This document shows positions 40,900 through 52,441 of a DNA stretch of 64,000 bases, piece after piece. The stretch's first letter is position 1; each line of letters begins with the position of its first letter. The DNA is from Mycobacterium senriense (GTDB lineage: Bacteria > Actinomycetota > Actinomycetes > Mycobacteriales > Mycobacteriaceae). Both the position numbers and the translations under genes were made by a program. The notes under the pieces are model-generated. The model worked only from the letters and a program-made list of their open reading frames with translations. It ran no database searches and was not told the origin of the DNA. Location: assembly GCF_019668465.1 (NCBI RefSeq), contig NZ_AP024828.1, positions 2,046,001 to 2,110,000 on the forward strand, in the 5' to 3' direction.

Positions 40900-42294
40900 C
40901 TAGCGGATGTCCTCGGCGAGCGCGCGAGCCTCCCGCTCGGTTTCGACGGCGGGCCCGGAGCCGGGCAACGGCTTGCCGGCGACTTCAGGGGTGAACAGCA
41001 ACGTGATCGCCCCCACCACGCCGGCGAAGATCAACATGTAGGCCGGCACCATCACGTTGCCGGTGCCCGACACCAGCGCCTGGGCGATCAGCGGCGTGAT
41101 GCCGCCGACGAGGGAGATCGAGATGTTGTACGAAATCGCCAGCGATCCGTAGCGCACGTTGGTGGGGAACAAGGCCGGCAGCATGGCCGGCCCGGTGCTG
41201 TCGAAGCACAGTTCCATCATGCCGATCAGCAGCACGCCGATGAAGATCACCGGGTATACGCCGCCGAAGCGGATGAGCAGGAACGCCGGGATGGAGGCAC
41301 CGATCAGCAGGACGCACCCCGTCCACATGATGGGTTTGACGCCGATCCGGTCGGACAAGGCGGCGACGAGCACCACGGTGACCATCAGGATCGCCAGCGT
41401 CGACACGATCATGACCAGTCCGGCGGTGCGCCCGACGCGCACGAACAGTCTGAGGTAGGTCGGCAGATATCCGGTGAGCATGAAGTCGGCGACCTGGGAG
41501 GTCAGCACCAGCGCAGCGCAGATCAGCATCGGGCGCCACTGGGCCGCGACCGTGCGCAGAATTTGCTGCGATCCTTGGCCGCCCGACCCGGGCGCCCCGT
41601 CGTTCGCGCTCTGGTAGGCGGAGGATTCCTTGAGCCGAAGCCGTAGGTACAGGGCGACCAGGCCGAAGGGCAGGCCCAGCAACAGCGGAATCCGCCAGCC
41701 GTACGTCAGCATGGCGTCGTCCGGCAGCCAGGTCTGTAGGCCGGTCACCAGCAACCCGGCGAGGACGAATCCGACCAGGTTGCCCATCGGCAAGAAGCCG
41801 ACCATCATGCCGCGTTTGTGGTCGGGGGCCTGCTCGACGAGATAGGTCATCGCACCGACGTACTCTCCGCCGGTCGACAGGCCCTGAAAGATTCGCGCGA
41901 TGACGAGCAGGATCGGCGCCCAGACACCGATGGTGCTGTAGGTGGGCAGCAGGCCGGTCATGGTGGTGCTCACCGTCATCATGAGGATGGTGACCACCAG
42001 CACCCGGTGCCGCCCGATGCGGTCGCCCAGCGGGCCGAAGATGAATCCGCCGAGCGGGCGCACGACGAACGCCGCCGCCAGCGTGCCGAAGGTCGCGATG
42101 AGGTGGACGCCGCTGACGCTCTTGCCGGGGTAGAACACCTGGGCGATCGTGGTGGCGATATAGCCGTAAACCCCGAAGTCGTACCACTCCATGAAGTTTC
42201 CGATGGCGGTACCCATTATGGTCTGCCGCATCGCCGGATCGGCGACCCTGATGTCTTTACGGGCCCATTTTTTCCGGCGGCGTCGAATACCCAT
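40900..42294 (-). CDS. MHS-family MFS proton symporter (ProP-like)
   Basis: 464 aa from ATG 42294, 12 helices. The MHS markers GTAIGNFMEWYDFGVYGY and GPLGDRIGRHRVL (motif A), then ARIFQGLSTGGEYVGAMTYL and DHKRGMMVGF are all present. It imports osmolytes or carboxylates with H+. It faces PhoU on the same strand with a 75-nt gap. Substrate unknown. Confidence 0.9.
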   Translation of the reverse strand: MGIRRRRKKWARKDIRVADPAMRQTIMGTAIGNFMEWYDFGVYGYIATTIAQVFYPGKSVSGVHLIATFGTLAAAFVVRPLGGFIFGPLGDRIGRHRVLVVTILMMTVSTTMTGLLPTYSTIGVWAPILLVIARIFQGLSTGGEYVGAMTYLVEQAPDHKRGMMVGFLPMGNLVGFVLAGLLVTGLQTWLPDDAMLTYGWRIPLLLGLPFGLVALYLRLRLKESSAYQSANDGAPGSGGQGSQQILRTVAAQWRPMLICAALVLTSQVADFMLTGYLPTYLRLFVRVGRTAGLVMIVSTLAILMVTVVLVAALSDRIGVKPIMWTGCVLLIGASIPAFLLIRFGGVYPVIFIGVLLIGMMELCFDSTGPAMLPALFPTNVRYGSLAISYNISISLVGGITPLIAQALVSGTGNVMVPAYMLIFAGVVGAITLLFTPEVAGKPLPGSGPAVETEREARALAEDIR

Positions 42295-42529
42295 CGAATG
42301 ATGGCTTACCCGAAACATTCCCGGGACGAACCGGCGGGGTCGGGTGATAGGACCTTTCTCCGGGTTACCCGCAGACCCCCGAGATCATCCCCCCGGGCCA
42401 CGGGCGGACGTGATTGGTTCCGGAAAACTCCAGCTAGGCGCGCGTCGCCGCCGCCGCGGACGACGACAGCGCGGCGCCGCCGGAACAGAATCAGTTATTC
42501 GCGTCACGTCCGCTCGTTCGCGGCGTGGT

Positions 42530-43453: not shown

Positions 43454-44338
43454 TTGTCCGACAAACCCGGTGATGCCGTCAGCTTGGAACCGCATTTCGA
43501 GGACGTACAAGCGCACTACGACCTGTCCGACGAATTCTTCGCGCTCTTCCTGGACCCGACGCGGACCTACAGCTGCGCCTATTTCGAGCGCGACGATATG
43601 ACGCTGGAAGAGGCGCAGTACGCGAAGGTCGACCTCTCGCTGGGCAAGCTCGGGCTGCAGCCTGGCATGACATTGCTCGACATCGGGTGCGGGTGGGGCA
43701 CCACGATCGTCCGCGGCCTGGAGAACTACGACGTCAACGTCGTCGGCCTCACGCTCAGCCGCAATCAACAGGCACACGTGCAGCGCCGGCTGGACAGCCA
43801 TCCCTCGGCGCGGTCCAAGCGCGTGCTGCTTCAGGGCTGGGAGCAGTTCGACGAGAAGGTCGACCGGATCGTGTCGATCGGCGCCTTCGAGCACTTCGGG
43901 CGCGACCGGTACGACGAATTCTTCAAGAAGGCCTACGAGGCGCTACCGGCCGACGGCGTCATGATGCTGCACACCATCATCAAGCCCAGCGACGAGGAAT
44001 TCGCGGAGCGCGGGCTGCCCATCACCATGACCAAGCTGCGCTTCATGAAATTCATCATGGACGAGATCTTCCCGGGCGGAGACCTGCCGCAGGCCAAGGG
44101 CGTCGTGGAGCACGCCGAGCGGGCCGGCTTTGGTGTGAAGCTGATTCAGCCGCTGCGCCTGCACTATGCCCGCACCCTCGACACCTGGTCGGCGGCGCTC
44201 GAGGCGCGCCGGGACGAGGCCATCGCGATTCAGTCCGAAGAGGTCTACGACCGGTACATGAAGTACCTGACCGGATGCGCGGACCTGTTCCGCGAGGGCT
44301 ACACCGACGTCGCGCAGTTCACCCTGACCAAGGGATGA
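43454..44338 (+). CDS. Cyclopropane mycolic acid synthase family methyltransferase
   Basis: 294 aa. It has VQAHYDLSDEFFALFLDP, YSCAYFERDDMTLEEAQYAK, motif I LLDIGCGWGTTIVRG, GLTLSRNQ, RIVSIGAFEHF, HTIIKPSDEE, and KLRFMKFIMDEIFPGGDLP, all standard for CmaA/MmaA/PcaA enzymes that add cyclopropane or methyl-branch groups to mycolates. The member cannot be fixed further from sequence. TTG start after AGAGG; the first ATG would delete 50 residues of the SAM domain. Confidence 0.92.
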   Translation: MSDKPGDAVSLEPHFEDVQAHYDLSDEFFALFLDPTRTYSCAYFERDDMTLEEAQYAKVDLSLGKLGLQPGMTLLDIGCGWGTTIVRGLENYDVNVVGLTLSRNQQAHVQRRLDSHPSARSKRVLLQGWEQFDEKVDRIVSIGAFEHFGRDRYDEFFKKAYEALPADGVMMLHTIIKPSDEEFAERGLPITMTKLRFMKFIMDEIFPGGDLPQAKGVVEHAERAGFGVKLIQPLRLHYARTLDTWSAALEARRDEAIAIQSEEVYDRYMKYLTGCADLFREGYTDVAQFTLTKG

Positions 44339-44428: not shown

Positions 44429-45874
44429 TCACACCGGGAGCCCTTCCGATGCGTTGGACTCGCTCTGCACGCCGGTGCTCGCGGGCTTGCGGCGAAGGTC
44501 CTCGCTGACGTCGTCGAGCGCCAGTCCGGCCGGTTCGCGCACCAGGACGGTCGTGGCGATCCCTGCGGCGTAGCAGCAGAAGCCCAACAACGTCACCGCA
44601 CGTAACCCGGCGCCGCTGAGCAGGAGCGGCACAAACAGAGCACCTAGGAAGGCCCCGACTTTCGCGATGGCCGAAGAAAGCCCGTGAAAGGTACTGCGAA
44701 CGGCGGTGGGGTACGACTCGGCCGCGAGAAGCATCGTCGTGTAGTTGGGTCCGAAAGCGACGCCGAACAAAGACATGCCGAACACGATCGCGAACGGCAC
44801 TACCGAGGCGCTGATGACGGGGAAGACCGTTATCAACAGCATCGCCAACGCGCAGATACCGAATCCGAGTGCCTGCAGCACGCGTCGGGGCATGCGGTCG
44901 AGCACCAGCAGGCCGGCGATCGCTCCGCCGAGACCGAAACAAATGACCAGGACCGCGTTGAGGGCGATGTTGGACACCACGCTGCCGTGGGGCGCGATGT
45001 GCTTGATCAGCAAGGGTTGGCTGACGTAGCTGCCGTAGACGGCGACATTGAAGAAGAACCAGCTCCCGGCGGTGCCCAGCAGGATGGTGAGGACTTTCCG
45101 ATTGGACAGGCCGATCTTGGCGGCTGGAGTCGCGGCAACGGTGGGCGAAGTGAATGTCGCACGCGATTGGGCAAACGCCGCAAAGTCTTTCAGCGCCTGC
45201 CGTTCGTCACCACGTTCGGCGGTCCAGCGCGGCGACTCGGGCATGTGACGACGCTAATACAGCACCAGCAGAGACGGGATCACTCCCATCCCGAGTATCA
45301 GCCGCCAGGCGATGTGATCGGGAACGCCGACGGCCAGTACCAGGAGGCTGACCAGATAGGCGACGACCTGACCGAACACATAGAAGATGAAGGTCAGCCC
45401 GACCAGTTGACCGCGGTTTCGCCGGTTCGCGTATTCGGCCATGATGACGCCGCTGGCGGGATAGTCGCCTCCGATCCCGATTCCCAGTATCAGCCGCGCG
45501 ACGACCAGGACAGTGAAGTTGGGAGCGAACGCGGAGAGCAATGCCCCGACAATCATCAAGACCGCTTCAAAACCGTAGACACGCCGCCGGCCGAGCATGT
45601 CGCCGAGACGCCCGAAGGCGATGGCGCCCAACGCAACTGCCAACAGTGTCGAGCTCGTCAGCATCGAAATCTGCCCGCCGGTGAGATAGAACTGCGGAGT
45701 GGTCAGCAGGGTTACCGTACCGATGACGTTGAGATCGTAGGAGTCCGTGAAGAATCCGGCGCCGGCGGTCGCCGCCGCCTTGAAGTGGAAGATGTCGAGC
45801 TTTGCGTCGTCGATCGACCTGACGACACCGACCTGTGCCGGCCCAACATCGTGCCGGCTCCCCGAACTTGTCAT
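44429..45874 (-). pseudogene. MFS transporter (PHS-like) interrupted by one in-frame amber codon
   Basis: From ATG 45874 the frame encodes an MFS N-half (GFFTDSYDLNVIGTVTLL, GRLGDMLGRRRVYGFEAVLM, GIGIGGDYPASGVIMAEYA) to LVLY, then TAG at 45256-45254, then in the same frame RRHMPESPRWTAERGDERQA and a normal C-half to 44429. The join LVLY*RRHMPESPRW is exactly where PHS-type symporters have L-x-R-x-x-MPESPRW. So a single nonsense change, from CAG, TTG or a similar codon, splits a 481-aa protein. Reinitiation at ATG 45244 would give only the C-half. The gene is divergent from the GntR-phosphonatase unit and was likely its transporter. Confidence 0.85.
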
Positions 45875-46001
45875 GATAAGTACGGTCCAACACGCACCAG
45901 AGGCAAGTCAACGGCGTACCGTTCTTTTCGGCTATGTTCAATATCCGTTAACCACAAGTGGGTTCGGTGCTCATCGGGCCGGATCTATTAGCGTCAGCAT
46001 G

Positions 46002-46014
46002 TATAGTCAAGTGC
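46002..46014 (+). promoter_or_regulatory. -10 TATAGT for the leaderless gntR operon
   Basis: TATAGT at 46002-46007, 7 nt, then ATG 46015. No Shine-Dalgarno precedes it. It lies within the 140-nt divergent region shared with the MFS gene, where the GntR protein probably binds. Confidence 0.6.
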
Positions 46015-46779
46015 ATGGCAGTGGCGCTGCACGAAATGATCGCCGACAGCCTGCGGGAGCAGATCCGGGCCGGAGAGCTGCCCGTGGGTGCTGAGCTTCC
46101 GTCGGAATCTCAGCTCTGCGACCGGTGGAAGGCGTCACGCGGACCCGTGCGCCAGGCGCTGGCGGCGCTGCGCGCCGAAGGAGTCATCGCCGGCGGTCGC
46201 GGGAAACGGCCGGTCGTCCGCACGACTTCGATCGGCCAGCCGTTCGACACGCTGCTGTCTTACTCCGCCTGGGCCCAATCGATCGGGCGCAAGCCCGGAC
46301 AGCGCACGCTCGAATTGGCCTTGCGCCGAGCGGATCAACACGCGGCCTCGGTGCTCCAGATCGACGAGGGGGCGCCGGTCGTGCAAATGTTGCGGTTGCG
46401 CTACCTCGACGGCGAGCCCGCGATGCTGGAACGCGCGACGTTCGTCGCGGACGTGGGTCGCCGGTTGTTCGACTTCGATTGCGACTCAGGGTCGTTGTGG
46501 GCTTACCTGTTGTCGCAAGGGGTGCGGTTCTCGACCGCTTCTCACGTCATCGACGCGATCGCGGCCGACCCCGTCGACTCTGCGCATCTCTCTGTGGCGC
46601 AAGGTGATCCGCTGCTAAGGCAGCAGCGGATCACCCGAGGAGTCAGGGGCGAGATCATCGAATACCACGACGACCGGTATCTGCCTTCCATGGTCAGCTT
46701 CACACTGGAGAACACCCTGGACGCGCGCTGCGCCCTCGCCCGAAATGCCAAGCCCGGGGCGGAGGCGGACGCCCGATGA
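46015..46779 (+). CDS. GntR-family regulator (HutC/PhnF-like)
   Basis: 254 aa. The winged HTH is LHEMIADSLREQIRAGELPVG, then LPSESQLCDRWKASRGPVRQAL. The C-terminal UTRA ligand domain (MLRLRYLDGEPAMLERATFV, VRFSTASHVIDAIAAD, LLRQQRITRGVRGEIIEYHDDRY, landmarks) is that of the HutC/PhnF subfamily, whose members often control phosphonate or amine catabolism. It overlaps the phosphonatase gene by 4 nt and presumably regulates the divergent transporter too. Confidence 0.88.
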   Translation: MAVALHEMIADSLREQIRAGELPVGAELPSESQLCDRWKASRGPVRQALAALRAEGVIAGGRGKRPVVRTTSIGQPFDTLLSYSAWAQSIGRKPGQRTLELALRRADQHAASVLQIDEGAPVVQMLRLRYLDGEPAMLERATFVADVGRRLFDFDCDSGSLWAYLLSQGVRFSTASHVIDAIAADPVDSAHLSVAQGDPLLRQQRITRGVRGEIIEYHDDRYLPSMVSFTLENTLDARCALARNAKPGAEADAR

Positions 46780-47483
46780 GCGCCCGGCTCGAGCTGGCCG
46801 TACTGGACATGGCCGGCACCACCATTGACGAGGGACAGCAGGTCTACCGGGTTCTGGCTGAAACGGCGGTCGCCTATGGCGCAACACCGTCACCGGCCGA
46901 CATCGCTCGCTGGCACGGGGCGGCCAAACACGAGGCGCTGCGTGCGCTGCTCACCGGACCCGGTGGTGAGCCCCCGAGTGCGGACCTGCTGGACACGGTG
47001 GTCGCCGATTTCCGTTCCCGGCTGACGGCCGCCTACGCGATCTCGCCGCCATGCCCGCTGCCCGGTGTTACCGACGCGATGGCCGTGCTGCGCTCCGCCG
47101 GCATCCGGGTCGCGCTCACCACCGGGTTCGATCGCGACATCGTCGACTCACTGATTTCCGCTTTGGGCTGGGACGGCGATTCGGTGGCGGACGACGTCGT
47201 TTGCGGCAGCGACGTGGCGGCCGGGCGCCCGGCGCCCTTCATGATCTTCCGGGCGATGGAGAACCTCGGTGTCGTCGGCGTGGACCGCGTGCTCATCGCC
47301 GGAGACACCCCGCGTGACCTGCAAGCCGGAACCAACTCCGGCGCGGCGTTCGTCGTCGGTGTCCTGTCCGGGGCCGGGGACGCGGTCGAACTCGGCAGGC
47401 ATCGGCACACCCATCTGGTCGCGTCGGTGGCCGACCTGCCCACGCTGCTCGAGCTGCGCAACGCGGCGGCCAGCCCCGCGTGA
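46776..47483 (+). CDS. Phosphonatase-like HAD hydrolase (PhnX-related)
   Basis: 235 aa. The N-terminal HAD motif is LDMAGTTIDEG, the DxAGT form specific to phosphonoacetaldehyde hydrolase and its sister family, with nucleophile D11. The cap domain has WHGAAKHEALRALL with K51, aligning with the Schiff-base lysine of PhnX (Lys53 in Bacillus cereus). VAAGRPAPFMIF has Arg in place of the usual HAD motif 3 Lys, and IAGDTPRDLQAG gives the last Asp. All features that allow C-P bond cleavage of a 2-oxoethylphosphonate are present. It is joined to its neighbours by 4-nt overlaps. Confidence 0.85.
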   Translation: MSARLELAVLDMAGTTIDEGQQVYRVLAETAVAYGATPSPADIARWHGAAKHEALRALLTGPGGEPPSADLLDTVVADFRSRLTAAYAISPPCPLPGVTDAMAVLRSAGIRVALTTGFDRDIVDSLISALGWDGDSVADDVVCGSDVAAGRPAPFMIFRAMENLGVVGVDRVLIAGDTPRDLQAGTNSGAAFVVGVLSGAGDAVELGRHRHTHLVASVADLPTLLELRNAAASPA

Positions 47484-48562
47484 TGCAGCCGACGCCATCG
47501 CCCCAAAAGGCCGCCGTCAGGATCGACCACACCTTGGCGGCCGTGTGGCGGGGCGGCGCCGACATCGCGGTGGAATCGGTGACCGTGCCCCCGCTGGGGC
47601 CCGGTGATGCGTTGGTGCGAGTCAGGCTTGCCACGGTGTGCGGTAGCGACAGACTTACGGTGAGCGGACGGCGCCAACAGCCGTGCCCGTCGATCCTCGG
47701 CCACGAGACCGTCGGTGAGATCGTGGCGCTGGGCACCGGTGAGCCACGGGCCGTGGATGGACGGTCGTTGCGCGTGGGTCAACGCGTCATCTGGAGCGTG
47801 ACGTGGCCGTGCGGCACCTGCGACCGGTGCCTGGCCGGCGTCACGGCGAAGTGCCGGGTGGTGCACAAGGCCGGCCATGAGGCGCTGAACTCCGAATGGG
47901 CGCTGTCCGGTGGGTACGCCCAGCACGTGCTGCTCCCGCGCGGCTTGCCCGTTGCCGTGGTCGACGACGACCTCATGGATTCGGTCGCCGCACCTGCGTC
48001 GTGTGCTACGGCGACGGTCATGGCCGTTCTCGAACGCGCGGGAAGCCTGGCCGGCCGACGAGTCATTGTGCTCGGCGCCGGCATGCTCGGGCTGACCGCG
48101 ATCGCCGCCGCCGTGTCTGCAGGCGCTTCCGTGGTGACCGCGGTCGATCCGGCCGCGGCCAGAAGGCAGTTGGCACGGCGATTCGGCGCTACCTCGGTGC
48201 GGGATTCGGTCGGCGGCGCCGACGCGAGCGACATCTTGCTGGAATTCTCCGGCGTACCGGATGTCCTGCAAGACGGGCTGGCAGGCCTCGACGTCCAGGG
48301 GATAGCCGTCCTCGCCGGCTCCGTCGCACCGAATGCGGCCGTGGCGGTCGACGCCGAGTCGGTGGTACGCCGTCAACTGTCCATCCTCGGCGTACACAAT
48401 TACGAACCGCGACACCTGGCAGCGGCACTGACCTTTTTGCACCGAACGTGCGAGCGCTTCCCGTGGCACGAGTTGGTCGCCGACCCCGGATCACTCGACG
48501 ACCTCGGCGCCCTGCTGGTCGCGTCCGCGGGACCTGTGCCGCGATACTCGATCGCCCCTTGA
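47480..48562 (+). CDS. Zinc-dependent alcohol dehydrogenase, phosphonate-associated type
   Basis: 360 aa. It has CGSD (catalytic Zn Cys), GHETVGEIVALG (His-Glu), the structural zinc lobe CGTCDRCLAGVTAKC, then HALNSEWALSGGYAQHV-like region and Rossmann GAGMLGLTAIAAAVSAGAS. This is the MDR architecture of the dehydrogenases found next to phosphonatase-like genes (TIGR03366-type). It probably interconverts a phosphonate alcohol and aldehyde. GTG 47480 overlaps the upstream stop; ATG 47483 is equally possible. Confidence 0.82.
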   Translation: MMQPTPSPQKAAVRIDHTLAAVWRGGADIAVESVTVPPLGPGDALVRVRLATVCGSDRLTVSGRRQQPCPSILGHETVGEIVALGTGEPRAVDGRSLRVGQRVIWSVTWPCGTCDRCLAGVTAKCRVVHKAGHEALNSEWALSGGYAQHVLLPRGLPVAVVDDDLMDSVAAPASCATATVMAVLERAGSLAGRRVIVLGAGMLGLTAIAAAVSAGASVVTAVDPAAARRQLARRFGATSVRDSVGGADASDILLEFSGVPDVLQDGLAGLDVQGIAVLAGSVAPNAAVAVDAESVVRRQLSILGVHNYEPRHLAAALTFLHRTCERFPWHELVADPGSLDDLGALLVASAGPVPRYSIAP

Positions 48563-51685: not shown

Positions 51686-52441
51686 TCAGCGTTGGTCCGG
51701 CGTCCCGAACAGCGACGCCGCCAATTCGATCAGCGATGTGCCCGAGGCGTCCCAGGCGCCCGCGGGCGTCGGGTCGGCCGGCAGGCCCGGCCCGTATTCC
51801 GCCGGGCGCGCGACGAAACCGGTGGCCAAGCCGCTGGCCTGGGCCGCCTCCAGGTCGGAGGGGTGTGCCGCCACCAGCATCACCTCACCGGGTTCCAGGC
51901 CCAGCAACTGCGCGGGCGCCCGGTACGCACGCGGGTCGGGCTTGAAGGCCTTGCTGACATCCGAACCGAGCACCACATCCCACGGCAGGCCCGCGTACTT
52001 CGCCATATCGACCAGCAGCCCGGTGTTGCCGTTGGACAGCGGCCCGACGATCACGTGCCGCTTCATGGCCTGGATGCCTTCGACGCTGTCCGGCCACGGC
52101 GGCAGCCAGCGCCATGACCGGGCCAGGTCGTCCACCTCTCCGCCGGGCAGCGCCTCGGCGCCGACGCCGAACTTCTCGAACGATGCGAGCAGGTTCTCTC
52201 GATGCAAGACGTCCAGCGACACAAATTCCCGGCGGCCCGAGCGGACTTCGGCCATCGACGGGAGGTAGTGACCGCGCCACTCCAGCGCAAATGCGGCGGC
52301 ATCGAGGCTGAGCTGGTGGCGGTGCGCGAAATGCCCTACCGAGGCCGCGATCCCGGAACGCCAGTCGACGACCGTACCGAAGGTGTCGAACAAAACGGCA
52401 CGCACTGCGCGGCCGGTCGAGGGCGAGCGGTAATCGGTCAT
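51686..52441 (-). CDS. Haloacid dehalogenase type II (L-2-haloacid dehalogenase-like)
   Basis: 251 aa. LFDTFGTVVDWRSGIAA (nucleophile Asp in FDTFGT), GPLSNGNTGLLVDMAKYAG and SDVSKAFKPDPRAYRA (Lys), then MLVAAHPSDLEAAQASGL. This is the type II haloacid dehalogenase layout (DTFGT, S/N, K, D). May dehalogenate 2-haloacids or be a general HAD phosphatase. Nearby genes give no context. Confidence 0.85.
   Translation of the reverse strand: MTDYRSPSTGRAVRAVLFDTFGTVVDWRSGIAASVGHFAHRHQLSLDAAAFALEWRGHYLPSMAEVRSGRREFVSLDVLHRENLLASFEKFGVGAEALPGGEVDDLARSWRWLPPWPDSVEGIQAMKRHVIVGPLSNGNTGLLVDMAKYAGLPWDVVLGSDVSKAFKPDPRAYRAPAQLLGLEPGEVMLVAAHPSDLEAAQASGLATGFVARPAEYGPGLPADPTPAGAWDASGTSLIELAASLFGTPDQR

What the first reader, a model, noticed from the sequence alone, without database searches (positions are those of the whole stretch)
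44429..48562. Phosphonate-aldehyde-like catabolic unit with a failing transporter
A leaderless GntR (PhnF-like) gene, a phosphonatase-like HAD hydrolase and a zinc alcohol dehydrogenase are chained by 4-nt overlaps, and a divergent MFS carrier shares their control region. The hydrolase keeps DxAGT (D11), the cap Lys (K51) that forms the Schiff base in PhnX, and Arg for the motif 3 Lys, so C-P cleavage chemistry is possible on a 2-oxoethylphosphonate or related aldehyde. The dehydrogenase would make the aldehyde from an alcohol. Unlike Pst/Phn systems there is no ABC transporter or C-P lyase. This could be a compact, undescribed mycobacterial route for a hydroxy-alkylphosphonate.
Basis: partly seen in the sequence, partly recalled or inferred. 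Interest (0 to 1): 0.75.

Follow-up and report, generated by a model that had tools for sequence, protein, structure and literature searches.

The report
Likely hydroxyphosphonate-degrading gene set
A mycobacterium carries a regulator, an alcohol dehydrogenase and a carbon-phosphorus-bond hydrolase that together probably free phosphate from a hydroxylated phosphonate, and related gene sets in other bacteria swap enzymes and transporters in a way that points to the substrate.

Summary
GntR, HAD hydrolase and zinc dehydrogenase genes overlap by 4 nt each, and a divergent MFS gene is cut by one in-frame stop. The hydrolase and dehydrogenase pass the NCBIfam cut-offs of TIGR03351 (PhnX-like) and TIGR03366 (HpnZ), already proposed for phosphonate catabolism; I found no paper testing either.

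New here is the pattern of neighbours. Of 105 TIGR03351-type loci in the genus, 101 lie beside this dehydrogenase or a TIGR03364 flavoenzyme, the family of PbfD1, shown in print to make phosphonoacetaldehyde (PAA) from amines but not to oxidise 2-hydroxyethylphosphonate (HEP). The dehydrogenase accompanies PhnDCE or the window's MFS type in 38 of 39 loci, and aminoethylphosphonate-type PhnSTUV or another MFS in 0 of 51.

Best reading: the dehydrogenase oxidises a hydroxyphosphonate, most likely HEP, to PAA; the hydrolase cleaves it to acetaldehyde and phosphate. Substrate and chemistry are inferred. Against it: the mycobacterial PhnDCE studied in print moves phosphate, 17 of 55 dehydrogenase loci lack a nearby hydrolase, and fold comparison alone does not single out PhnX. 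A new variant of a known kind.

The parts
46015..46779 (+). GntR/UTRA (HutC type) regulator, 254 aa, PhnF-like but below the PhnF cut-off
   Evidence: Pfam GntR + UTRA; TIGR02325 103.4 bits against a cut-off of 156.8
46776..47483 (+). HAD hydrolase, TIGR03351 PhnX-like, 235 aa; D11, K51, T116, R151, D177
   Evidence: 268.7 bits (cut-off 218.9); TIGR01422 PhnX 100.6 (cut-off 220), not met; residues; model pLDDT 87.6
47480..48562 (+). Zinc alcohol dehydrogenase, TIGR03366 HpnZ_proposed, 360 aa; C54/H75/E76, four Cys 111/114/117/125, GRR 63-65, D223 (zinc and cofactor roles recalled from the ADH superfamily)
   Evidence: 415.7 bits (cut-off 328.1); conservation; model pLDDT 85.0
45254..45874 (-). 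N-terminal piece (206 aa) of the divergent MFS carrier, ends at an in-frame stop
   Evidence: an intact relative (L066) is nearest to TIGR00887 phosphate:H+ symporter, 223.9 bits, far below its cut-off of 610.3
44429..45244 (-). C-terminal piece (271 aa) of the same MFS carrier
46000..46011 (+). Conserved TGTATAGTCAAG with a -10-like TATAGT just before the GntR start; candidate promoter/operator
45866..45881 (.). Near-palindrome ACTTGTCATGATAAGT (14 of 16 symmetrical) over the MFS start; candidate operator; within 3 changes in 14 of 16 loci, absent from L026 and L075

Best explanation
A substrate-induced phosphorus-scavenging set. The divergent MFS carrier (intact in relatives) imports a hydroxylated phosphonate, most likely 2-hydroxyethylphosphonate (HEP). 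The NAD-type zinc dehydrogenase oxidises the alcohol to phosphonoacetaldehyde (PAA). The PhnX-like hydrolase forms a Schiff base through K51, attacks phosphorus with D11 and releases phosphate and acetaldehyde. The GntR protein represses the divergent promoters from conserved sites until a ligand binds its UTRA domain. Shown: gene order, family membership, residues, conserved DNA elements, neighbour statistics. Inferred: every chemical step, substrate identity, transport and regulation.
For: (1) Family scores over cut-off for HAD and ADH. (2) Catalytic Asp, cap Lys, Thr and Arg align with five annotated PhnX proteins. (3) 101 of 105 genus TIGR03351-type loci lie beside a TIGR03364 flavoenzyme or the TIGR03366 ADH; the paper on PbfD names PbfD1, which makes PAA, as a TIGR03364 member (PMC10590968, passages). 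On a Pararhizobium plasmid a TIGR03364 gene overlaps a true PhnX, so the partner hydrolase of that flavoenzyme can be PhnX itself. (4) In 13 of 15 loci outside the genus, and in Nonomuraea, the window-type HAD lies by a TIGR03364-like flavoenzyme, often with a divergent GntR or phosphonate-type ABC genes. (5) ADH follows transporter type: 38 of 39 loci with PhnDCE or MFS_A, 0 of 51 with PhnSTUV or MFS_B. (6) The assayed flavoenzymes did not oxidise HEP (data not shown there), so an alcohol would need another enzyme. (7) HAD-MFS_A-ADH in a second, colinear form in six genomes; the two of these HADs put in the tree lie in the other lineage. (8) 46 of 55 ADH-bearing genus genomes have a TIGR03351 HAD over cut-off (51 with sub-threshold hits) against 39 of 193 without the ADH. 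(9) No PhnJ in the genome, E. coli control positive.
Against: No activity is known to me for TIGR03351 or TIGR03366. 17 of 55 ADH loci have no HAD nearby: 15 with PhnDCE, one with only the MFS (G100), one alone (G149); four ADH-bearing genomes (G020, G100, G149, G238) have no TIGR03351 HAD at 202 bits or more. The Microlunatus HAD (L072) falls inside the ADH-paired HAD group but has neither ADH nor flavoenzyme mapped beside it. A review (PMC7866108, passages) says M. smegmatis PhnDCE moves phosphate, not phosphonate, which weakens PhnDCE as a sign of the substrate. PhnX His56 (recalled numbering) is Ala or Val in all TIGR03351-type rows but one, which has Gly. The structural comparison ranks other HAD phosphatases beside or above PhnX. 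The carrier is interrupted in this strain. Counts are not independent of phylogeny.
Confidence: 0.57

Rival explanations
1. The ADH acts after the HAD: it reduces or oxidises the acetaldehyde released, and the HAD's substrate is a phosphonate aldehyde made elsewhere.
For: ADHs commonly act on acetaldehyde (established knowledge).
Against: FAD-HAD loci with PhnSTUV or MFS_B would release the same acetaldehyde yet carry the ADH in 0 of 51; ADH stands with PhnDCE and no HAD in 15 loci; no known PAA-making enzyme family was recognised in the window's set.
Confidence: 0.13
2. Same chemistry, another hydroxyphosphonate (for example 2-hydroxypropyl-, 3-hydroxypropyl- or 1,2-dihydroxyethylphosphonate), with the HAD acting on the matching aldehyde or ketone.
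For: TIGR03351 is a separate clade from PhnX (100/99) with a changed cap, so the substrate may differ from PAA; the ADH pocket is untested.
Against: PbfD-type partners are shown in print to yield PAA, so PAA is the simplest shared intermediate.
Confidence: 0.18
3. Not phosphonate: the HAD is an ordinary phosphatase and the ADH a sugar- or polyol-type dehydrogenase; PhnDCE in mycobacteria marks phosphate supply.
For: Fold comparison gives other HAD phosphatases equal or higher rank; mycobacterial PhnDCE reported as a phosphate carrier (PMC7866108).
Against: Cap Lys kept in every TIGR03351-type row but one (L182); AEP-type PhnSTUV and TIGR03364 neighbours in many loci (35 and 72 of 105).
Confidence: 0.1

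Closest known systems
TIGR03351 PhnX-like + TIGR03366 HpnZ (NCBIfam proposed phosphonate-catabolism families)
   Same: Both proteins pass the curated cut-offs
   Different: The families are hypothetical equivalogs without an assayed member that I found; the GntR-HAD-ADH/MFS layout and the transporter rule are described here
PhnWX hydrolytic pathway (PhnX, TIGR01422)
   Same: DxAGT, cap Lys, Thr and Arg positions; same proposed C-P cleavage
   Different: Score 100.6 against 220; separate clade; no PhnW in the set; alcohol oxidation in place of transamination
PbfD-PhnX / FAD-HAD sets (TIGR03364, N-methyl-AEP and AEP oxidase)
   Same: Oxidoreductase + PhnX-type hydrolase + transporter; same HAD family and, outside the genus, a related GntR (53-59% in loci L170, L171, L174, L180)
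   Different: Zn-ADH replaces the flavoenzyme; MFS_A or PhnDCE replaces PhnSTUV
PhnX with iron ADH PsrA (TIGR03405 Phn_Fe-ADH), Agrobacterium plasmid
   Same: Phosphonatase, alcohol dehydrogenase and transporter gene close together
   Different: Unrelated ADH family, LysR-type regulator, protein annotated as PhnX

Membership tests
TIGR03351 PhnX-like | NCBIfam cut-off 218.9 bits | tested here: met
   268.7 bits
TIGR03351 PhnX-like | DxAGT, cap Lys, Arg in place of motif 3 Lys (features recalled from the family comment) | tested here: met
   D11, K51, R151
TIGR01422 PhnX (PAA hydrolase) | NCBIfam cut-off 220 bits | tested here: not met
   100.6 bits; outside the PhnX clade
TIGR01422 PhnX (PAA hydrolase) | PAA hydrolysis | not testable with these tools
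   needs an assay
TIGR03366 HpnZ | NCBIfam cut-off 328.1 bits | tested here: met
   415.7 bits
TIGR03366 HpnZ | Zinc ADH ligands (positions recalled) | tested here: met
   C54, H75, E76 and C111/C114/C117/C125 invariant in 51 sequences
PhnF (TIGR02325) | NCBIfam cut-off 156.8 bits | tested here: not met
   103.4 bits
TIGR00887 phosphate:H+ symporter | NCBIfam cut-off 610.3 bits | tested here: not met
   intact relative L066 223.9 bits; the window's pieces 116.1 and 100.5
C-P lyase pathway | PhnJ in the genome | tested here: not met
   no PF06007 match; E. coli control positive

The most novel reading that the evidence does not exclude
A dedicated oxidise-then-hydrolyse route for HEP: a zinc HEP dehydrogenase plus a PhnX-like hydrolase, assembled more than once by swapping the amine oxidase of FAD-HAD sets for an alcohol dehydrogenase together with a matching change of transporter. 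It would release phosphate and acetaldehyde from HEP, instead of the ethylene made by C-P lyase.
Probability: 0.45. Interest if true: 0.68.

Novelty: new variant of a known kind. Interest (0 to 1): 0.52.

Why it matters
HEP is a natural phosphonate; the degradation I read of in print is by C-P lyase with ethylene as product (PMC5649143, passages). The phrase 'hydroxyethylphosphonate dehydrogenase' had no occurrence in the held library, 'hydroxyethylphosphon' has none in a 2023 review of phosphonate degradation (PMC10574752), and PbfF was tested for HEP oxidation and excluded (PMC12366243, passages). The neighbour pattern gives two 'proposed' families, TIGR03351 and TIGR03366, a concrete and cheap test, and shows how one hydrolase might be re-aimed by changing the oxidoreductase and the carrier.

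Tried and rejected
Rejected: 'mycobacteria only' (name Streptomyces and Kitasatospora). Rejected: fold search as proof of function; PhnX ranks among many HAD phosphatases. Weakened: ADH as acetaldehyde disposal. TIGR01422 over 149 genomes of the phylum gave nothing at 1e-50, but no control rang, so absence is not shown. TIGR03364 in the own genome: none over cut-off, and no control rang over cut-off. Own genome has another PhnD-type protein over cut-off with PhnE-like sequence, so a second ABC system of unknown substrate exists. Structural neighbours of the ADH model are assorted zinc dehydrogenases and do not tell the substrate.

Weak rows: in L025 the MFS match is only 42% and lies downstream, so MFS_A with ADH is 19 clear loci plus this one. 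L192's matched MFS span holds a stop at codon 6 of 483, just after the HAD match end, which I take to lie before the gene's start. The first gene caller missed genes; counts rest on the tblastn maps, with 'beside' meaning midpoints within 6.5 kb. In one search the duplicate copies L067, L069, L070, L071, L073 and the non-genus L072 were dropped before counting; the 105 loci are the 96 over-cut-off places listed, 6 listed places at 202-214 bits, and 3 named records (L065, L066, L068) that were not scored. Two 'otherHAD' rows were misread or partial and were dropped. Of 8 contrast rows, 6 looked mistranslated (wrong strand); that contrast is not used. Papers: PMC10590968, PMC12366243 (section 7 and passages), PMC10574752, PMC5649143, PMC7866108: passages only; the others: search listings.
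Full report
What is there. The window lies in a 5.83 Mb genome; its nearest named relatives found are Mycobacterium colombiense records (HAD 92 and 94% identical; a third record under that name 82%). At 46015-48562(+) three genes overlap by 4 nt: GntR/UTRA regulator, HAD hydrolase, zinc dehydrogenase. A divergent MFS gene starts 140 bp away and is cut by one in-frame stop into pieces of 206 and 271 aa. The matched MFS span is free of stops in all 16 other loci at 70-100% identity (4 are second copies, one genome's match is cut by a contig end), so the break is peculiar to this strain or an error of its assembly. dN/dS in comparisons with eight relatives is 0.09-0.31 for every gene, both MFS pieces included: the set has been under selection, and the break, if real, is recent.

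Families. HAD: TIGR03351 268.7 bits (cut-off 218.9); PhnX TIGR01422 100.6 (cut-off 220). ADH: TIGR03366 415.7 (cut-off 328.1). GntR: PhnF TIGR02325 103.4 (cut-off 156.8). An intact MFS relative (L066) is nearest to the phosphate:H+ symporter model but far under its cut-off. The HAD sequence's best solved relatives are PhnX structures. Aligned with five annotated PhnX proteins it keeps Asp, Ala-Gly-Thr, the cap Lys, the Thr-Gly and Gly-Arg-Pro motifs and D177; one TIGR03351-type row (L182), which also lacks the flavoenzyme neighbour, has lost the Lys. The tree separates PhnX from TIGR03351 (100/99) and makes the six ADH-paired HADs tested, plus the Microlunatus row L072 that has no ADH mapped beside it, one fork (100/100) whose nearest rows are flavoenzyme-paired HADs (89/84). 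An AlphaFold2 model (pLDDT 87.6) has the common HAD fold; Foldseek puts a PhnX first but VIA-align places other phosphatases level or ahead, so fold is no proof. The Lys position was judged by alignment; I had no model coordinates. The ADH keeps the zinc ligands in 51 homologues and, across three operon types, a CGSD-x-HTV-x-GRR signature in 27 of 30 rows (the window itself has Leu for the His, L032 and L238 differ in the GRR part); the basic GRR is a candidate phosphonate contact (inference).

Neighbourhoods. In 248 genus genomes, 85 have a TIGR03351 HAD over cut-off and 55 have an ADH at E <= 1e-70; 46 of those 55 are also HAD-positive (51 with sub-threshold hits), against 39 of 193 without the ADH. 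I mapped 105 non-redundant HAD loci of the genus. With PhnSTUV (AEP-type): 35 loci, flavoenzyme 34, ADH 0. With MFS_B (glycerol-phosphate-transporter-like): 16, flavoenzyme 16, ADH 0. With PhnDCE: 19, flavoenzyme 13, ADH 18. With MFS_A (the window's type): 20, flavoenzyme 0, ADH 20. None of these transporters mapped: 15 (flavoenzyme 9, ADH 3, neither 3). In all, 101 of 105 have a flavoenzyme or the ADH; the exceptions are L105, L112, L116, L185. The transporter-ADH link is 38 of 39 against 0 of 51; the Fisher value is not a true probability because relatives are not independent. HAD-MFS_A-ADH also occurs as one colinear row in six genomes (L192-L197); the two of these HADs put in the tree (L192, L196) fall in the other main lineage: a second assembly of the same three functions. 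From the ADH side: 17 HAD+MFS_A, 15 PhnDCE only, 12 flavoenzyme+HAD+PhnDCE, 6 HAD+PhnDCE, 3 HAD only, 1 MFS_A only, 1 none; 13 of the 15 PhnDCE-only genomes have a HAD over cut-off elsewhere. Outside the genus a search of 394 genomes of the class found a close relative of the window's HAD in 15, two of them of the genus; the flavoenzyme lies by the HAD in 13 of 15 mapped loci (not L072, L182) and in Nonomuraea, often with a divergent GntR or phosphonate-type ABC genes. Five HAD/ADH pairs in the homologue lists share contig lengths (936276, 378826, 271337, 208153 and 51628 bases), four of them named Streptomyces or Kitasatospora, which suggests the pair there; I did not fetch those contigs.

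Mechanism. PbfD1 is annotated as a TIGR03364 member (PMC10590968, passages): PbfD enzymes oxidise N-methyl-AEP and AEP to PAA, which PhnX cleaves, and did not oxidise HEP. On a Pararhizobium plasmid a TIGR03364 gene overlaps a PhnX gene that passes the PhnX cut-off. If TIGR03351 does in actinomycetes what PhnX does there, its substrate is PAA, and exchanging an amine oxidase for an alcohol dehydrogenase together with the carrier points to the matching alcohol, HEP. A similar neighbourhood with an unrelated iron ADH (TIGR03405) is seen on an Agrobacterium plasmid. Each chemical step is inferred.

Control region. TGTATAGTCAAG lies before the GntR start in all 16 loci aligned, the window included (13 exact, 3 with one change), and occurs exactly once in the genome. 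A 16-bp near-palindrome overlaps the MFS start and is kept within 3 changes in 14 of 16 (not L026, L075); L025, whose divergent gene is not the MFS, has it as a perfect palindrome. Part of it codes the MFS start, so coding could explain some of the conservation. Both are candidate operators; binding is untested.

Against. No assay of either family was found (five terms; four papers listed, one of which holds 'phosphonatase-like hydrolase', seen in the listing only). The M. smegmatis PhnDCE is described as a phosphate carrier that does not move phosphonate (PMC7866108, passages). 17 of 55 ADH loci lack a HAD nearby, and four such genomes lack one altogether at 202 bits or more. The PhnX His after the cap Lys is absent in TIGR03351-type rows, though also in the annotated Bacteroides PhnX. 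Other hydroxyphosphonates fit nearly as well as HEP.

Verdict. A real, conserved set; likely hydroxyphosphonate catabolism; the families were already proposed, while the layout, the transporter rule and the HEP prediction are new to me and I saw them in none of the listings of my searches or the passages I read.

Noticed in passing
40900-42318 (-): A second MFS carrier of the metabolite/H+ symporter type (nearest ProP, 397 bits, below cut-off) lies close by; 30% to the window's MFS N piece.
   Followed up: no
43454-44338 (+): Cyclopropane mycolic acid synthase family methyltransferase, 495 bits (cut-off 390), beside the 3' end of the broken MFS.
   Followed up: no
L192-L197: Colinear HAD-MFS-ADH sets in six genus genomes, a second layout of the same three functions.
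   Followed up: partly
L028, L029, L032, L228-L237, L239, L240: PhnDCE-ADH without a HAD nearby in 15 genus genomes; G020 and G238 have no TIGR03351 over cut-off at all, so the aldehyde's fate there is unexplained.
   Followed up: partly
L243 4780-5907: Iron-containing ADH PsrA (TIGR03405) near PhnX and an ABC binding protein on an Agrobacterium plasmid: a possible unrelated counterpart.
   Followed up: partly
L182 1422-2129: A window-type HAD relative that has lost the cap Lys and has no flavoenzyme or ADH mapped beside it; a natural control for the Lys.
   Followed up: no
51686-52441 (-): Another HAD-like reading frame (251 aa, DTFGT motif), apart from the set.
   Followed up: no
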